From assembly GCA_025093555.1 (NCBI GenBank), contig JAIWNF010000061.1:186001-250000 (forward strand): a stretch of 64,000 nt of DNA, written 5' to 3'. The first letter of the stretch is position 1; each line of letters begins with the position of its first letter. This document shows positions 34,525 through 64,000 of the stretch, one piece after another. The notes under the pieces were generated by a model. The model had not been told where the DNA came from and did not search any database. It saw only the letters and a list, made by a program, of their open reading frames with translations. The position numbers and the translations under genes were made by a program. Source of the stretch: Circinella umbellata (taxonomy: Eukaryota; Mucoromycota; Mucoromycetes; Mucorales; Lichtheimiaceae).

Positions 34525-36078
34525 TATTATTATTCTTTCTCTTCTCTTTTCTCTTTTATTTCTTTATTCTCTAACGCACACTCACACTCACACTCACATA
34601 CTCTTCCTTTCTTATTTCATCTTCCTTTCTTCTTTTTTATATATCAATGACATATAATTTGTACTCTCTTTTATATAAAAAAATATATATATTTTTTGTT
34701 GTCGATTGGACTGGTTATATATTACCAAATTGATGATCGTTGTATTTCTGAGGATAACATAATGAAAATGGATATATAGTTGATATAATTTATTAATAAG
34801 TTGATGATAGCCAACTTTTTATCGTCACTTGTCTTTGCCTCCTGCATTCAATTATTATCAAACCTGTGCCTGTTTCCTTTTATTCTTTACTATTAGTTTA
34901 GGATACGTTTATTATTTTATTCATTTTTTAGTTGCTTGCGACGACAGGCAACATCGAGCCATCATTTTTTTTACTTGCTGAATATACCTGGACACTCAAC
35001 TGACCAATATCCGAGAGCTTCTGATAGTACCACCTTTTTCGCTCGGATTAAAAAATATGTCTATGAGAACAGTGCGTTATAAAGATGCCAAATTTTATAA
35101 TTATATCGAAACGGTTAGTTCTCATACATTAATTAAATTCTTTGATTTAGAACTTATTTTCCGTGCAATACTCTACGTGTACTTATCCTGTTCCCCAAAC
35201 TATAATCATTAACTCTGTCTATTATCACACTAGTAATATGTACCGATCTATATAAATTAGTACGAATGCTCGAGGAAAGTGAAAACTTGAAATGAGTTTC
35301 TATCTATATAGTTTATAACTGACTACTGTGGATGAAGAGAGCGATCATTTTATCAGATAAAAGCATAATGTAATCGAAAAATATAATGTAACCATAAATC
35401 CAGACGTATTACCACACACTACCCTATATAAACTATTTTGTCTCAGTGCGACTTAAAAATAAGACAGTTGCAATTTGTAATTTGGATAGAAAAAGACTAT
35501 GTAAACAGAATAATTAAAAGATCCATACTTTTATATTTGCATACAAGTGTTGACACCAGCAGCTTTTGAATGGGTAAATAAAAGCTTATCAATTATGCTT
35601 AATGCAGTCAAAGCAAGAAGACTAACAATTGTATGACAAAAACAAAAATCCACCCACGACCTTGTAAAAGGATGTTTCATGACATAGAAAAGTGTCCCCA
35701 TTAAAAAAAATAGCATATACCCAAAAACATATAGTTTACTGAGCTTTTTTTAAAGAAAAATTAATGGTATATGTTGGCTTTTCTCTAACGGTTCATGACC
35801 AAGTTATTGTTGAAAAAGCATTTATGACCTGCTAAGCCTATAATTAGCAACAATATTTGGTTCCGTGTAGCACAAAAAACGCCTTGCCGCACTGCATTTG
35901 ACCAAAACTTGGATAAAAAAGGGTGCAGACAAGATGCTAACTTGTTAATCAAATTTGGGTTTATTTTTTTTCTTATTTGCTAAATTCCCCTTTTTCTTTT
36001 ATTTGTAACATTTGTTGTTCTTCTTTAATCTTTTTTTTTTTTAAAAAAAAAGGAAGAATTGCATATGGAACAAAAGAC
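34525..36078. other. Spacer between TOG and LEA-2-like genes
   Basis: 1.55 kb. The first 200 bp are a T/CT-rich 3' flank with a CACACTCACACTCACACT run (34573-34598). A possible small minus-strand gene (35453-35716) is listed separately. A T12A9 block (36031-36051) lies 28 bp before the next start codon. Confidence 0.55.
35453..35716 (-). CDS. Candidate small membrane protein, two exons
   Basis: The frame from the ATG at 35716 encodes MLFFLMGTLFYVMKHPFTRS then WVDFCFCHTIVSLLALTALS, with two hydrophobic segments. A donor GTATGC at 35544 and an acceptor TAG at 35497 join it in frame to a short second exon (35453-35496: FFFYPNYKLQLSYF) for a total of 71 residues. The protein-like first exon and clean splice sites argue for a gene or an exon of one. 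No family is recognised, and the start could lie further upstream (the frame stays open through KLYVFGY). It may be a relic of a multi-pass protein. Confidence 0.3.
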
Positions 36079-37221
36079 ATGGACGAGCAAGTCCACTATT
36101 ATGATCCATATCGATCACGTAATAGTAACAGCAATAATGATAATAAGAATGATATAATTCAACCATTACCACTTGGTTTACTTTCTCAAGAAGATCAAGA
36201 ACAACGAGCTAATTCATATCTTCCTTATTCCAATCATCCACCTGATTTTTCTCATGCAAAAAACGAACTATACTTAAATGAAGAACAAGATGCTCCTTCA
36301 TCACTACGTCATCCACACTTTCAAAATCGTCTTGACTTATTACACCATGATGGTTTTAGCAGAAACGCAGAACATGGAAATGAAAGTGGTCCAAGTCGTT
36401 CCATGTTTTCTGCTACCACAATGTCATTTTTATTTAAATCAGCAACATTAGCGCCTGTGCATAAAGAACAAACATCTCTATCGCTTGAAATTGAACGTCG
36501 AAAAAAGAATCACCCAAAGCGACGATATCAACAACGCTGCTGTCATGTTTTGTTTTTTATTATAGCATTGATATTACTAGCAGCTGGATCAATTATCTTT
36601 TTTTGTTGGCCTCGGACACCACAGCTTTTAATGGACGATAGTGCACAAAGTATATATGCACCAACAGATTGGGGACAAGATAATTTAATTTCCTTGCGAG
36701 CAACATGGTTATTGAATGTTACATTTGATAATACACAAAACTGGCTGTCAACCCATATTTATTGGATGGAACTTTATCTTGTGGATGCATTACATCAAGA
36801 TAAACAATTTGGAATGGCAACAGAATCACTTGTTATACCACCACGAACAAGTTCACTTCAACAAATGATATTTCATGTTAGTTATGATGCTGCATCTTTA
36901 AATGATCCTACTTTTCAGAATTTATATAACGCGTGTGGCCCAAAAAAAGTTGGTACTTTATCCGATCTCGCTGTTGAAATACAAGTACTGTCTCTCTTTT
37001 TTTATTAGCTGTTTATAAATAATTCATTATTATATATAACAACATTAGTTAATCATGATTATTACTAACCGTTTCTGTTTTTTTCTTCTTCTATCTCTTT
37101 TTTTTATCCAATACTATTTTCAATGTATATGTAGGGTCAATTACATATTCGGGGGCTTGCATGGACACAGTATGTTAAAACAACACCATCCCGAGGAAAA
37201 TTCTTATGTCCAACAATATAA
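36079..37221 (+). CDS. LEA-2-like single-pass membrane protein A
   Basis: Two exons, 36079-36984 and 37135-37221 (330 residues). The start MDEQVHYYDPYRSR is chosen because the nearby ATG at 36065 runs into another frame and stops early. A polar N-terminal half of about 155 residues, with many Asn, Gln, His and Ser, ends in a basic run (ERRKKNHPKRRYQQR). One strong membrane segment follows (VLFFIIALILLAAGSIIFFC), then a C-terminal domain with alternating hydrophobic pattern (..LISLRATWLLNVTFDNTQNW.., ..LAVEIQGQLHIRGLAWTQY..). This order is that of fungal LEA-2/Tag1-like proteins, which place a beta-sandwich on the lumenal or outer side. The role is unknown. A second protein of this type is encoded at 45958-47218. 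Confidence 0.7.
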
Positions 37222-38329
37222 GTGTTATGTATATGATACTCGTATATATTGCGTATCTTTATGCAACACAAATGTGTCTAACATACTACTATATATTGCT
37301 ATTGATTTACTTTTAACTTATATCAATCCATTATAATCGCTTTATATCTAACCATAATACTACTAGAATAAAAGTATAAGCCTTAATACTCTTCTTGTTC
37401 GTATTTTTCTTTATAACATTTTTTTGTCTCTTGAATTCTTCTCGTTTTTTATTCTTATATAATAAACAACACCGAGAGCTATAAATTTATTTATCTTTAT
37501 AAAGAAAACAATAGAAAAGAGCCTTGACCATATTTTTTAAATGAAAAGGCAAATTTTCGACAATGACTGTGTTTGCTGTTCTCTTCTTTTTTTTACTTGT
37601 TTAGTATGTATTTTATTTATGTTTTAAAGAAGAATTTCTTGTTAGTTGATAAAGTAACTACTATTATAGCATGATCATATGTACAATACAACTAATACCG
37701 GGTGGTAAGTATCTACGTATAATATTTAGTATAAAACATTACTTTTGTACTATATAAAACAATGCTTGAATTTTATATTCCCCTTTTCTTCCTGCAGAAG
37801 AAAAAAAAGAAAAACGCGGCTTGCATATAATAACAACGAATGTAACCGTATTTAATTATATACTCTTTGTCAAAATTCCTATTTTTCAAGAAAATAACTG
37901 GATATAATCGTTGTTTGTTTGTTTGTTTTCATTTACTTATGACAGTTACTTCAATTCATCAAGTTAAACGGTAATATCAACACATCCCAGAGTCTTTATT
38001 ATTTTTACCTTTAATATTGAAGTTATGAGACATCATGTTTTAAATCTTATTCACTGGTAATAACCAGTTTATGCATGTTGTACATCAACATCGTCCGTAG
38101 CTAGAATAGGAGTAAAAAAAAAGTATACTGATCTTCGCTTCTCTTAGTATTAGAGGCAACAAATAACCCATTTAATAAATTCAGCTTTCTTGATGCCGAA
38201 CGCCATCACTCCTTTTTTTGAAATCATTTCTGAGTTTACAGCCCCTGTCATCGATATTATATAAAAGAGTTGAAATAAAAATAAAAATAATAGGAAAAAA
38301 ACAATTGGTTGTATCGTTTCTAGAAGAAA
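37222..38329. other. Spacer before the GH12-like gene
   Basis: 1.1 kb AT-rich, with a GTTTGTTTGTTTGTTT run (37913-37928). Only short chance frames are seen. A run of A/T and AATAAAAATAA just before 38330 may be the leader of the GH12-like gene. Confidence 0.55.
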
Positions 38330-39064
38330 ATGCAACTTAAACAATTTATTGGAGTTACTGCTTTATTTGCCTCAATTACAACTGCTGTACCCACCAGCAA
38401 AGAGTTTTGTGGTACAGAAGATAGTGTACAATATGGTGACTACAATGTTTACAATAACCTTGTCGGGCGAAGCAAATCTGGTACACAATGTACACGATTA
38501 ATAAAAGCAGACCAAGCCAATAGTGTTGGTTGGACTACCACATGGAGTTGGTCTGGAGAAGAAAAGAAAATCAAATCCTTTGCCAATGCAGCTTATCATT
38601 TTGAACCTAAGGCTATTTCTGATATCAAAAGTATTCTGATTAATTGGAATTGGTCTACTGGTCGTGGTGCTAAAAAAAGCAACGTAGCTTTGGAATTATA
38701 TACATATGCGTCCCCAGAAGATAGTGAAAAGGATTACGACTATACAATTTCAATCTGGCTTGGAAAAACCGGAAGTACGAAACCTTTGGGTAATCGGCTA
38801 GATAGTCCCATCTTCTCTACTGATGATGGAAACGAATATCAGATCTACGTAGGTTATAACGGTGCCCAAAATGTCGTTACCTTTGTTGCTACCGAACAAG
38901 TAAAAGAGTTTGATGGTGATGTTTTTTCGTTCATTCGTCATCTGATTGATACATATCATTTTCCTGATTCACAAGTATTGGGAGCGATCCGTGGTGGAAT
39001 AACTACTTATGTTGGCGATAAGGCCACTTTTACTACAAAGTCTTTCCAAGTGTCTGTTAATTAG
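38330..39064 (+). CDS. Secreted GH12-fold protein lacking both catalytic glutamates
   Basis: Intronless, 244 residues. Residues 1-20 (MQLKQFIGVTALFASITTAV) are a signal peptide. The mature part follows glycoside hydrolase family 12 endoglucanases/xyloglucanases throughout: FCGTEDSVQYGDYNVYNNL, SGTQCTRLI, GWTTTWSWSGEEKKIKSFAN, ISDIKSILINWNWS, SIWLGKTGSTKPLG, YQIYVGYNGAQNVVTFVA and a C-terminal FQVSVN. In active GH12 enzymes the nucleophile is the Glu of YE(L/I)MIWL and the acid/base is the Glu of FGTEPF. Here the first reads YTISIWL (Thr139, codon 38744-38746) and the second GGITTYVG (Thr225, codon 39002-39004). The frame is open and the fold residues are kept, so it looks like a maintained pseudoenzyme or lectin-like protein, not a decayed gene. 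Hydrolytic activity should not be assumed. Confidence 0.85.
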   Translation: MQLKQFIGVTALFASITTAVPTSKEFCGTEDSVQYGDYNVYNNLVGRSKSGTQCTRLIKADQANSVGWTTTWSWSGEEKKIKSFANAAYHFEPKAISDIKSILINWNWSTGRGAKKSNVALELYTYASPEDSEKDYDYTISIWLGKTGSTKPLGNRLDSPIFSTDDGNEYQIYVGYNGAQNVVTFVATEQVKEFDGDVFSFIRHLIDTYHFPDSQVLGAIRGGITTYVGDKATFTTKSFQVSVN

Positions 39065-47504: not shown

Positions 47505-48716
47505 CTTTGGCGGGATCTGAATTTCAATTTCGCCAAAGGTAATTTTCGAATTTACACATCGTGAATTTACACATTCGCGCACTTAATAATTTCAATTTCG
47601 CGTTCCAATATTATCATGTTTGCATCCCAAACCTTTTTAAATCTGCGTCCTAGTTATTATTATTGACGATCTATTCTTTTCAATTGTACATAATATAGGT
47701 TCAGAAAACAGGTAATTATAATTATAAATTAAACAACACTCCAGAAGACATCGTGGAAAAAATGATTTAGAGTGCAATATCCAACCCTGGCAGTTTTTAG
47801 CAGTTACTTGCTTGGCAGATTCGATAATACGTGGTGTCAAGGTGTGACATCCTTGGTCAAAAGGTCGCGCCTTACACCAGATTTTAGGTTCGACCAGAAT
47901 AATTCAATGGAATTTAAAAATGGTGAATATGCTGAGAGATATAAAATTTTATATCCTCTGTCTTTAGCTGCTTGACGTACAAAATTCGCATGATGAATTC
48001 TTGCATTATCCATTATAAGAGTCTTTCCGTACAAGTTGTTTTTGTCAAGAGCGTCCATTACTAAGTCCAAAAAATTCAGGAAGTGCTGTGTTCTTATTCC
48101 AATGTTAGCAACAATGCGTTCCTCTCGACCGTCCAACTTTCGTTTCTTCGATCCAACTATGGCTTGAGGACTTCTTAAAGACAAGTTCACTAGTCCTTCT
48201 CTGACAATAGCACCTAGAATTGTAACATTCACACCACGATTATTCGAAACAACTGCTTTGGCAGGGGTACCACATTTTGACCGACTAAATGTGCGTTGCA
48301 TATGAAAACTGAAACCAGCTTCATCTTTGAACACACAGCTTTCAAAATCGATATTTTCTTTCTCGATATTTAAAACCCATTGCGCTCGCATTGTAATTGT
48401 TTTTTCAGAGTTGCGAGCCTGAAATATTTTTTCAAGTTTCATCATAGTCAAACTACACTTGGCCACCAAATGCTTATGTACATCAGTGAAAAAAAATGTT
48501 TTTAGAGGGAGTAAATGGTGTTACTGTCACTTTTATAGTATTTATGCACAGTTCTAAGAATTTCTTGGCAAATGAAAACAACTCTTTCCCAAAAGCAGGG
48601 ACTTCGTCCGCTCCGTCAACATTGAAAAGCGATATTTTATGAAAAAGCAATACTTTGTGTTTTATTAGTCAAGAATAAAAAAAAAATGGGAAATTATTCT
48701 GTGCGCGAATTACCTT
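47505..48716 (-). mobile_element. Tc1/mariner element, left copy, truncated at inner end
   Basis: The outer terminus is TA|CTTTGGCGGGATCTGAATTT. The inner end stops at 48716 inside the other terminal repeat: about 31 bp present in the right copy (51179-51209) are missing, and an unrelated sequence begins. The lack of one complete terminus means this copy could not move by itself. Confidence 0.85.
47637..48469 (-). pseudogene. Tc1/mariner DDE transposase, frameshifted (left copy)
   Basis: The main frame (47837-48469) has the catalytic regions CVFKDEAGF (first Asp), LIMDNARIHH (second Asp) and PFLNSIELFW (third acid, Glu). It ends TKDVTP* and continues in another frame (47637-47840) as TPRIIESAKQVTAKNCQGWI then LHSKSFFPRCL, the usual transposase C-terminus, so there is one frameshift near 47840. 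No complete N-terminal helix-turn-helix region is found upstream; there is no ATG in a good context, and the frame begins at a TTG. It differs from the right copy by FSFHM and ANFVRQ. Not expected to be functional. Confidence 0.85.
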
Positions 48717-51178: not shown

Positions 51179-52421
51179 CTTTGGCGGGCTCTGAATTTTA
51201 ATTTCGCCAAAGGTAATTCGCGCACAGAATAATTTCCCATTTTTTTTTTATTCTTGACTAATAAAACACAAAGTATTGCTTTTTCATAAAATATCGCTTT
51301 TCAATGTTGACGGAGCGGACGAAGTCCCTGCTTTTGGGAAAGAGTTGTTTTCATTTGCCAAGAAATTCTTAGAACTGTGCATAAATACTATAAAAGTGAC
51401 AGTAACACCATTTACTCCCTCTAAAAACATTTTTTTTCACTGATGTACATAAGCATTTGGTGGCCAAGTGTAGTTTGACTATGATGAAACTTGAAAAAAT
51501 ATTTCAGGCTCGCAACTCTGAAAAAACAATTACAATGCGAGCGCAATGGGTTTTAAATATCGAGAAAGAAAATATCGATTTTGAAAGCTGTGTGTTCAAA
51601 GATGAAGCTGGTTTCAATTTTCATATGCAACGCACATTTAGTCGGTCAAAATGTGGTACCCCTGCCAAAGCAGTTGTTTCGAATAATCGTGGTGTGAATG
51701 TTACAATTCTAGGTGCTATTGTCAGAGAAGGACTAGTGAACTTGTCTTTAAGAAGTCCTCAAGCCATAGTTGGATCGAAGAAACGAAAGTTGGACGGTCG
51801 AGAGGAACGCATTGTTGCTAACATTGGAATAAGAACACAGCACTTCCTGAATTTTTTGGACTTAGTAATGGACGCACTTGACAAAAACAACTTGTACGGA
51901 AAGACTCTTATAATGGATAATGCAAGAATTCATCATGCGAATTTTGCACGTCAAGCAGCTAAAGACAGAGGATATAAAATTTTATATCTCTCAGCATATT
52001 CACCATTTTTAAATTCCATTGAATTATTCTGGTCGAACCTAAAATCTGGTGTAAGGCGCGACCTTTTGACCAAGGATGTCACACCTTGACACCACGTATT
52101 ATCGAATCTGCCAAGCAAGTAACTGCTAAAAACTGCCAGGGTTGGATATTGCACTCTAAATCATTTTTTCCACGATGTCTTCTGGAGTGTTGTTTAATTT
52201 ATAATTATAATTACCTGTTTTCTGAACCTATATTATGTACAATTGAAAAGAATAGATCGTCAATAATAATAACTAGGACGCAGATTTAAAAAGGTTTGGG
52301 ATGCAAACATGATAATATTGGAACGCGAAATTGAAATTATTAAGTGCGCGAATGTGTAAATTCACGATGTGTAAATTCGAAAATTACCTTTGGCGAAATT
52401 GAAATTCAGATCCCGCCAAAG
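51179..52421 (+). mobile_element. Tc1/mariner element, right copy, both ends present
   Basis: A 1,243-bp element flanked by TA (51177-51178 and 52422-52423). The terminal inverted repeats start CTTTGGCGGG and end CCCGCCAAAG, and extend about 45 bp inwards (..TCTGAATTT.AATTTCGCCAAAGGTAATT). Each terminal repeat is itself a small hairpin, CTTTGGCG ... CGCCAAAG. It contains one frameshifted transposase frame. Confidence 0.88.
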
Positions 52422-62256: not shown

Positions 62257-63042
62257 ATGAATTATGATGATGCCACCCCAGAATGGGCTAATGCCCTCCT
62301 TCAACGATTGCATGCAGTCGAACAGCAATTGGCTAATACAACCACTACTCATCAAGACCCTAATGTTACAGTTCGCAATCCTGGAGCTGATTTTACTCCA
62401 ACTGAACAAATGTTGGCTCAGTATCCATTCCTTCAAGAGAATTTCTTCAAACGACCATTGGAAGATAACCAATGAAGACAATTTCTTTTCGATTGTTCTA
62501 AGAATTCTGTTCGCACTTATGATCCACCCAAGATCAATAAAGTCGCAATATCGAATTTAGCGAAGCATTATGATTCTGTTTTATATAATATACAATATCG
62601 ATTATCAGGCCTCACAAGACTACTGGATTGGTTTTTATATCAAAACTTACATGGCAACTTCGATGATGTTCACATTCAACAACAAAGTAGTGATTTTGCT
62701 CAAGCTATGCACGAACTATTATCTGATTTGGCTTCTTATATCACCACCTTATGACCTGATAATCTTTACAAGGGTCTTCCCAATCACATTGAAGTTCCTG
62801 CTACCCAACAAGAAAAATTTTTGGTTGACACCCAAGACATGTTGGAACACATTAAACTCCAGCAATCAATACAAACTATCACTCAACGAAGACCCAAGAA
62901 AAACAAGGGACCTCGATTCTATAGTTTCCAAAAACAAGATCATGATAAGCAACATCATGAACAATCTCAGCGTCGCTCTGCAGACAACACCAATCATCAG
63001 CAATCATCATCTTATAATATGGTCAATAACGGGGCTTTCTGA
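62257..63042 (+). pseudogene. Gag-like ORF of a DIRS-like retroelement, with internal stops
   Basis: One frame starts MNYDDATPEWANALLQRLHA (62257) and runs 262 codons with internal stops TGA at 62473-62475 and 62752-62754, ending at a TGA at 63040-63042. Between stops it reads protein-like (..YDPPKINKVAISNLAKHYDS.., ..LYKGLPNHIEVPATQQEKFL.., ..RRPKKNKGPRFYSFQK..), with a helical N-terminus and a basic, Gln-rich C-terminus as in retroelement structural proteins. It lies directly upstream of the RT frame. The two internal stops can each be explained by a single C-to-T change. Confidence 0.6.
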
Positions 63043-63062
63043 CCCCAGCAACAATCTCAGCA

Positions 63063-64000
63063 GTGGGATTTTCATCCTCGCCAATCTCACCCAAAAACAA
63101 CTTAAAAAAGGTTGGAGGACGTCTATCTTTTCTTCTACATGGTCTTCTTCTCTTGGTTTCCAAATTTCACCATGGCTCAGCACACTACTCAAGTGCAGTT
63201 ACCGCCTTCCGCTCCTGTCTCCACCACCACTTACAAACCACCACAATTTTCTGCACTCCTTCGAAGACTCCACTTCAATAATAGACCAAGAAATCAAGAC
63301 TCTATTAGACAAGAATGCTATCGAACAAGTTTCTCCACCATCTCCAGGCTTCCAGTCTCACCTATTTTTACTCCCGAAAAAGGATGGAGGCCTTCGTCCG
63401 GTTCTCAACCTCCATCCCCTCAATCAATTTCTACCAACAATTCATTTTAAGATGGAATCTTGGCCCACCATAACCAATATGGTCCAACAAGGAGACTACC
63501 TAACATCAATCGATTTAAAAGATGCATTCCACCACATTCTGATTCACCCAGCACATCGTCATCTTTTGCAGTTTCAATGGCGCAAACAACTGTACCAATA
63601 CAAAGTACTCCCCTTCAGTCTCAGTCTGTCACCAATAATATTTACCAAAACACTGAAACCAATATTGAAATGGGCTCAGCAGCAGGGCATTCGTTTGACA
63701 GCTTACATGGACGACTTACTGATTATGGCAAAATCAGCAACACAAGCACAACAACACACTCAGCTGATCTCTCAAAAATTACAAGAACTTGGTTGGCTCC
63801 TCAACTTCAAGAAGTCCTAACTCATTCCAACACAAAAAATCGATCATTTAGGGATGTGTCTCAACACACAAACAATGACGATCTCAATTCCGGGCAAGAA
63901 AATTCGTACCCTTCGACGCACAGCCTACCAAATGCTTCATATGAAGACCATACCATGGACAAGGCTAGCCCAATTCATCGGTTCGGCAGTCGCCACTCAA
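63063..64000 (+). pseudogene. DIRS-like reverse transcriptase, partial and broken
   Basis: RT of the DIRS (tyrosine-recombinase retrotransposon) type. The order is VGGRLSFLLH (63110 on), a one-base frame change near 63141, SLGFQISPWLSTLLKCSYRL, DQEIKTLLDKNAIEQVSPPS, PKKDGGLRPVLNLHPLNQFL, DYLTSIDLKDAFHHILIHPA, LPFSLSLSPIIFTK, then the catalytic YMDD box (TAYMDDLLIMAKS) and LGWLLNFKKS. A TAA stop (63818-63820) follows, after which the same frame continues LIPTQKIDHLGMCLNTQTMT .. RRTAYQMLHMKTIPWTRLAQ to the window edge, entering the RNase H region. The YMDD and both upstream Asp motifs are intact, but the frameshift and stop make this copy defective. The recombinase would lie beyond the right edge. 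Confidence 0.85.

What the first reader, a model, noticed from the sequence alone, without database searches (positions are those of the whole stretch)
38330..39064. Secreted GH12-fold protein with both catalytic Glu changed to Thr
The protein follows GH12 enzymes closely from signal peptide to C-terminus, but the nucleophile position (YE.MIWL in enzymes) reads YTISIWL and the acid/base position (FGTEPF) reads GGITTYVG. Two independent catalytic losses in an otherwise intact, intronless, secreted frame suggest a maintained non-enzymatic role such as a glucan-binding protein, wall component or decoy. The catalytic motifs are family knowledge; the maintained role is inference.
Basis: partly seen in the sequence, partly recalled or inferred. 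Interest (0 to 1): 0.8.

Follow-up and report, generated by a model that had tools for sequence, protein, structure and literature searches.

The report
Non-catalytic GH12-like protein lineage
The mould Circinella umbellata carries a protein built like a plant-glucan-cutting enzyme whose cutting residues have been replaced; related moulds keep proteins of the same kind, so it probably now does another job, such as binding a sugar polymer.

Summary
Window 38330-39064 (+) is an intact, intronless 244-aa GH12-fold protein of Circinella umbellata (Mucorales) with a probable signal peptide. T139 aligns with the nucleophile Glu, T225 with the acid/base Glu. It is not a lone decaying copy. Nine proteins (three named genera plus unnamed records) form one clade that arose inside mucoralean GH12 enzymes. 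All nine lack the acid/base Glu: Thr in five of five of the window's subfamily, Gln in four of four of a second subfamily, which also has a copy in this genome. The nucleophile position reads T, K, E, Q, E in the window's subfamily (two keep Glu) and Gln in all four of the other. So the Thr/Thr pair is peculiar to this copy, while loss of the acid/base is old and shared. More is changed than two Glu: of five residues reported as invariant in GH12 (W22, M118, W120, E116, E200) this protein keeps only W120. Fold residues, the Cys pair and several cleft Asn are kept. Best reading: a maintained pseudoenzyme with a rebuilt cleft, most likely an extracellular or wall glycan-binding protein. Absence of GH12 catalysis is near certain; the binding role is inference.

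The parts
38330..39064 (+). Intronless ORF, 244 aa: GH12-fold pseudoenzyme (P0001)
   Evidence: PF01670 E 1.2e-28; homologue of equal length in Circinella minor
38260..38267 (+). TATAAAAG, possible TATA box about 60 bases before the ATG
   Evidence: read by eye; no test
38330..38386 (+). Probable signal peptide, residues 1-19 (to TTA|VPTS)
   Evidence: read by eye; residues 1-21 have pLDDT under 50 in the model; no signal-peptide program was run
38408..38410 (+). Cys27, first Cys of the conserved GH12 pair (TrCel12A C4), kept in 9 of 9 clade members
38489..38491 (+). Cys54, second Cys of the pair (TrCel12A C32), kept in 9 of 9 clade members
38417..38419 (+). Glu30 at the -4 subsite aromatic position (TrCel12A W7; W in 45 of 49 enzymes)
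   Evidence: subsite from PMC4680936
38462..38464 (+). Val45 at the -2 subsite stacking Trp (TrCel12A W22; W in 49 of 49 enzymes)
   Evidence: PMC4680936
38693..38695 (+). Glu122 at the auxiliary Asp (TrCel12A D99; D in 49 of 49 enzymes)
   Evidence: role from PMC3597598
38744..38746 (+). Thr139 (ACA) at the nucleophile Glu (TrCel12A E116)
38750..38752 (+). Ser141 at the conserved Met (TrCel12A M118; M in 48 of 49 enzymes)
38990..38992 (+). Arg221 (TrCel12A Q196 position): Arg in 9 of 9 clade members, in 0 of 49 enzymes
39002..39004 (+). Thr225 (ACT) at the acid/base Glu (TrCel12A E200): Thr in 5 of 5 of the subfamily

Best explanation
The gene encodes a folded, probably secreted, non-catalytic descendant of a mucoralean GH12 endoglucanase. 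A duplicate of an enzyme gene lost its acid/base Glu early. The lineage split into a subfamily with Thr there (this gene) and one with Gln at both catalytic positions. Fold residues and sugar-contacting residues N20, N151 and W120 were kept, while the aromatic residues at the -4 and -2 subsites were removed and an Arg was fixed in the cleft. The protein most likely works outside the cell as a lectin-like binder of a glycan other than plain beta-glucan, perhaps a polymer of the fungus's own wall. Shown: the frame, the substitutions, the clade, the predicted fold. Inferred: secretion, absence of activity, binding, ligand.
For: Both Glu replaced. 9 of 9 clade members lack the acid/base Glu; of 65 aligned GH12 proteins 53 are E/E and 3 are fragments with gaps. 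One clade, bootstrap/SH-aLRT 96/96, 98/89 with cleft columns removed. Of 45 enzyme-conserved columns, 10 of 14 cleft columns are changed in most members of the window subfamily against 7 of 31 others, Fisher p 0.003. Published Ala mutants of W22, D99 and M118 keep under 1% activity (PMC4680936, passages). Neutral-decay simulation of this CDS to 56% and 52% identity left 4 and 0 of 5000 frames open. N20, N151 and W120 are invariant in 9 of 9. The fold matches GH12.
Against: No binding, expression or localisation data. The subfamily evolves faster than the enzymes: 56% identity Circinella-Phascolomyces against 79% and 77% for two enzyme pairs, which also fits relaxed constraint. At the divergence of the nearest relative (91%) 1085 of 5000 neutral simulations also stay open. 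Protein databases tend to leave out broken copies, so the open-frame argument is biased. The nucleophile site is not conserved, so that part of the cleft is not held to one ligand. Two of five relatives keep the nucleophile Glu, and one of them (Zychaea) keeps the auxiliary Asp. dN/dS could not be computed because no DNA of relatives was held.
Confidence: 0.5

Rival explanations
1. Non-catalytic partner of the active paralogues: it binds or stabilises secreted GH12 enzymes, or draws inhibitors away from them, as PsXLP1 does for PsXEG1 in Phytophthora sojae.
For: Three enzyme-like paralogues with E/E lie in the same genome. PsXLP1 is a GH12 decoy that binds the soybean inhibitor GmGIP1 (PMC8960721, passages).
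Against: I know of no plant host of Circinella (recalled). PsXLP1 lost its acid/base by C-terminal deletion; this protein is full-length. A GH12 enzyme was solved with the protein EDGP (3vlb, title; that EDGP is an inhibitor seated in the cleft is recalled), and a rebuilt cleft would be a poor mimic (inference).
Confidence: 0.15
2. Structural wall, spore or sporangium protein that uses the stable jelly roll as a scaffold without ligand.
For: Fold core and Cys pair are kept while the cleft changes; position 139 varies freely in the subfamily.
Against: Arg at TrCel12A 196, Tyr at 202, Asn at 20 and 151 and Trp120 are invariant in 9 of 9, which a pure scaffold might not need. I saw no repeat, anchor or low-complexity tail in the sequence (by eye).
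Confidence: 0.15
3. Relaxed, slowly decaying gene without a current role.
For: Faster divergence than the enzymes; 91% identity to C. minor is compatible with an unconstrained frame: 1085 of 5000 neutral simulations at that divergence have no stop.
Against: Intact relatives in Phascolomyces and Zychaea at 51-56% identity, where 4 and 0 of 5000 neutral simulations stay open; 24 of 31 enzyme-conserved columns outside the cleft kept in most members; Thr225 and Arg221 fixed in 5 of 5.
Confidence: 0.12
4. Enzyme with changed chemistry, using other residues.
For: Glu122 stands at the auxiliary Asp, whose side chain is hydrogen-bonded to the nucleophile in ThEG3 (PMC3597598); Arg221 is new and fixed. 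No model coordinates were available to me, so no distances were measured.
Against: Position 122 is E, E, E, N, D in the five, so no second acid is conserved there; W22 and M118 are gone as well.
Confidence: 0.06

Closest known systems
GH12 endoglucanases and xyloglucanases (TrCel12A 1h8v, Aspergillus niveus 4npr, Rhizomucor miehei xyloglucanases A and B)
   Same: Pfam family, fold, Cys pair, length, probable signal peptide; the clade nests among mucoralean members
   Different: Both catalytic Glu, auxiliary Asp, W22, M118 and W7 replaced; the window gene has no intron whereas the three enzyme genes of this genome have two, two and one
PsXLP1, GH12-like decoy of Phytophthora sojae
   Same: Catalytically dead GH12 paralogue kept beside an active one (PMC8960721, passages)
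   Different: PsXLP1 is shortened at the C-terminus and so loses E222; here substitutions in a full-length protein of a fungus, with a rebuilt cleft; no host inhibitor known
Beetle pectin-digestion pseudoenzymes
   Same: Plant-wall-degrading enzyme family with members kept after catalytic loss (PMC6549527, start of abstract in the listing)
   Different: Other enzyme family (GH28, recalled), other kingdom; only the kind is shared

Membership tests
GH12 enzyme | Sequence match to PF01670 over the curated cut-off | tested here: met
   101.1 bits, cut-off 27
GH12 enzyme | GH12 beta-jelly-roll fold | tested here: met
GH12 enzyme | Nucleophile Glu and acid/base Glu | tested here: not met
   T139 and T225 at the two positions
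GH12 enzyme | W22, M118 and W120, reported as invariant (PMC4680936) | tested here: not met
   V45, S141, W143: one of three kept
GH12 enzyme | Hydrolysis of beta-glucan or xyloglucan | not testable with these tools
   needs an assay
PsXLP1-type decoy | Dead GH12 paralogue beside active-looking paralogues in one genome | tested here: met
   L001-L003 carry both Glu; their activity was not tested
PsXLP1-type decoy | Loss by C-terminal truncation | tested here: not met
   match runs to profile position 207 of 207
PsXLP1-type decoy | Binds a host glucanase inhibitor | not testable with these tools
   needs a binding assay
Maintained pseudoenzyme family | Catalytic loss shared by relatives with intact frames | tested here: met
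   9 of 9 lack the acid/base Glu and form one clade; one of the nine (P0004) is a partial record
Maintained pseudoenzyme family | Purifying selection (dN/dS under 1) | tested here: inconclusive
   Only a neutral-decay simulation on open frames; no DNA of relatives held

The most novel reading that the evidence does not exclude
A Lichtheimiaceae lineage turned a secreted glucanase into a two-subfamily set of wall lectins that bind the acidic polyuronides of Mucorales walls. The Gln/Gln subfamily has three new cleft Arg and neither catalytic Glu; the Thr subfamily, to which the window gene belongs, shares one of these Arg.
Probability: 0.12. Interest if true: 0.75.

Novelty: new variant of a known kind. 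Interest (0 to 1): 0.48.

Why it matters
It would show that a cellulase fold was converted rather than merely broken: catalytic acids lost in order, cleft rebuilt, fold kept, over at least three genera. One genome holds three enzyme-like copies and one copy of each kind of pseudoenzyme, a clean set for testing what a dead glycosidase does. It also warns that PF01670 counts overstate glucanase content in such fungi: 2 of the 5 matches in this genome are non-catalytic by sequence.

Tried and rejected
An early reading that the acid/base is Ala in the relatives was wrong by one residue; the alignment shows Thr in all five (corrected in the notebook).

Basic cleft for the whole clade: the mean charge of 20 cleft columns is -4.1 in 49 enzymes, +0.2 in the window subfamily (Zychaea copy -3) and +1.0 in the Gln subfamily; random column sets shifted as much in 5 and 3 of 10000. 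Much of this is the catalytic acids themselves. With the triad left out, sets as large number 131 of 5000 (window subfamily) and 78 of 5000 (Gln subfamily) against all enzymes, 390 and 338 against mucoralean ones. With the less surely aligned loop 123-129 left out too, the window subfamily shows no shift (785 and 1810 of 5000), while the Gln subfamily keeps it (5 and 27 of 5000). So the polyuronide idea rests mainly on the Gln subfamily and one shared Arg.

A lone decaying copy was rejected. A contaminant origin was not pursued: the gene lies on a 262,962-base contig with a fungal PH-like domain protein and other eukaryote-type genes in the window. A promoter and terminator scan with bacterial patterns found promoter-like sites at the chance rate and does not apply to a fungus. 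An mRNA-derived origin is suggested by the lack of introns in both pseudo-genes of this genome, but intron structure in other species was not available. Foldseek and VIA lists for the window model show GH12 and then GH11 chains among the rows printed (50 each); other folds were not excluded by that. Paper searches: GH12 with Mucorales (8 papers), with pseudoenzyme (0), with XLP1 and decoy (1), wider ones with 32, 100 and 54 papers of which 15 each were listed, Circinella with genome and CAZy (1), Circinella umbellata with genome (3). By title and start of abstract none of the listed papers reports this lineage; the library holds open-licence papers only. PMC5872309 was seen in passages and not used.

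Full report
What is there. The window is part of a 50.8-Mb genome in 210 contigs. Three GH12 proteins named Circinella umbellata in public sets lie on contigs of 199867, 1523114 and 196182 bases; the contigs of L001, L003 and L002 have exactly these lengths, and P0014 is identical to the spliced L001 protein. The genome is therefore C. umbellata, Mucorales, Lichtheimiaceae. The ORF at 38330-39064 (+) reads 244 codons without stop, matches PF01670 at E 1.2e-28 and has a C. minor homologue of equal length, 91% identical.

The catalytic sites. Aligned to 4npr, T139 and T225 stand at the two Glu. TrCel12A numbers were carried over through the Trichoderma protein P0060, aligned to 1h8v. Of 68 proteins held I aligned 65, leaving out two duplicates of one frame and one vector copy. 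Of the 65, 53 are E/E, 4 Q/Q, 5 have Thr at the acid/base with T, K, E, Q, E at the nucleophile, and 3 are fragments with gaps. They come from three searches, two of them started from the odd proteins and one from a mixed alignment, so this is not a census of GH12.

More than two residues. For 49 full-length E/E proteins (seven fragments left out), 45 columns with a TrCel12A number are at least 90% conserved. Most members of the window subfamily differ at 10 of 14 cleft columns and 7 of 31 others (Fisher p 0.003), of the Gln subfamily at 12 of 14 and 12 of 31 (p 0.004). The cleft list comes from residues named in PMC4680936 and PMC3597598 (passages), with position 201 added by me. Changed in the window subfamily: W7 to E; W22 to V or I; D99 to E, E, E, N, with D kept in Zychaea; M118 to S, S, S, E, A; E116 and E200 as above; P201 to T or A; F202 to Y. 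N in 5 of 5: positions 20, 62, 95 and 151 (at 95 the enzymes have 33 D and 16 N); W120 and P129 are kept in 5 of 5. Arg at 196 is in 9 of 9 and in 0 of 49 enzymes. PMC4680936 names W22, M118, W120, E116 and E200 as absolutely conserved in GH12; this protein keeps W120 alone. The paper reports that W22A, D99A and M118A keep less than 1% activity. It also gives a CMC association constant of 3.45e6 per M for W22A against 8.18e6 for the comparison protein, so binding can outlast that loss.

The second subfamily. The same genome holds L005:1492-2319 (-), 275 aa in one frame, PF01670 E 9.8e-13, with Gln at both catalytic positions. Two unnamed ENA proteins and one of Phascolomyces share the Gln/Gln pair, 4 of 4. 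Its cleft has three Arg not seen in the enzyme consensus (positions 7, 118, 196). Its predicted model (mean pLDDT 76.4) matches GH12 structures, best Foldseek E 1.6e-19.

History. For a tree I used 37 of the 65: all nine odd proteins, 12 mucoralean E/E and 16 others out of the 37 remaining full-length ones. The nine form one clade (96/96), inside a 16-row group with seven enzymes of Circinella, Phascolomyces, Fennellomyces and Lichtheimia (99/96). With the cleft columns removed the clade stays (98/89), and the group too (97/93). The branch to the Gln subfamily is long (1.9 and 1.7) and its composition odd, so the union of the two subfamilies deserves some caution. By parsimony on that tree the acid/base was lost before the genera split, and the nucleophile at least twice within the window subfamily (my reading). 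The three enzyme genes have two, two and one introns; in all three one intron lies directly before the codons of [AS]GTEPF. Both pseudo-genes of this genome have none. That fits an mRNA-derived copy, unproven.

Is it maintained? Circinella-Phascolomyces identity is 79% and 77% for two enzyme pairs, 58% for the Gln and 56% for the window subfamily: faster, but intact. Random mutation of the window CDS to 91, 77, 56 and 52% identity leaves 1085, 74, 4 and 0 of 5000 frames without stop. The nearest relative alone therefore shows nothing. The far ones speak for constraint, with the caveats that databases favour intact proteins and that the Phascolomyces record P0004 is partial. No dN/dS was possible.

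How it may work. The model has the GH12 fold. Without nucleophile and acid/base, catalysis by the GH12 route is excluded on family knowledge. The kept Asn and Trp of the cleft, the lost aromatic platforms and the fixed Arg suggest a changed sugar ligand. Mucorales walls contain glucuronic acid polymers, mucoran and mucoric acid (PMC6433966, passages), so an acidic wall glycan is a fair guess. The charge test supports it for the Gln subfamily and not clearly for the window one.

Compared with what is known. PsXLP1 is the nearest described dead GH12 protein that I found (PMC8960721, passages), but it is shortened and acts on a plant inhibitor. Rhizopus oryzae was reported to have no apparent GH12 xyloglucanase (PMC3032700, passages). 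I found no description of this lineage in the searches, judged by title and start of abstract of the papers listed. I rate it a new variant of a known kind: a pseudoenzyme lineage of GH12 descent, not a GH12 enzyme.

Noticed in passing
L005:1492-2319 (-), contig C90 of the same genome: Second intronless GH12-like gene with Gln at both catalytic positions and three new cleft Arg; the Gln pair is shared by 4 of 4 members found.
   Followed up: yes
47837-48469 (-) and 51457-52089 (+): Two nearly identical 210-aa DDE_3 transposase ORFs in opposite orientation about 3 kb apart.
   Followed up: no
62570-63820 (+): Reverse-transcriptase ORF (RVT_1) near the window end.
   Followed up: no
38330-39064 and L005:1492-2319: Neither non-catalytic protein of C. 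umbellata appeared among the protein-database hits, although its three enzyme paralogues did; they may be missing from the public annotation.
   Followed up: partly
35977-37008 (+): ORF upstream of the gene with a central hydrophobic stretch (by eye) and no Pfam match at E 0.001.
   Followed up: no
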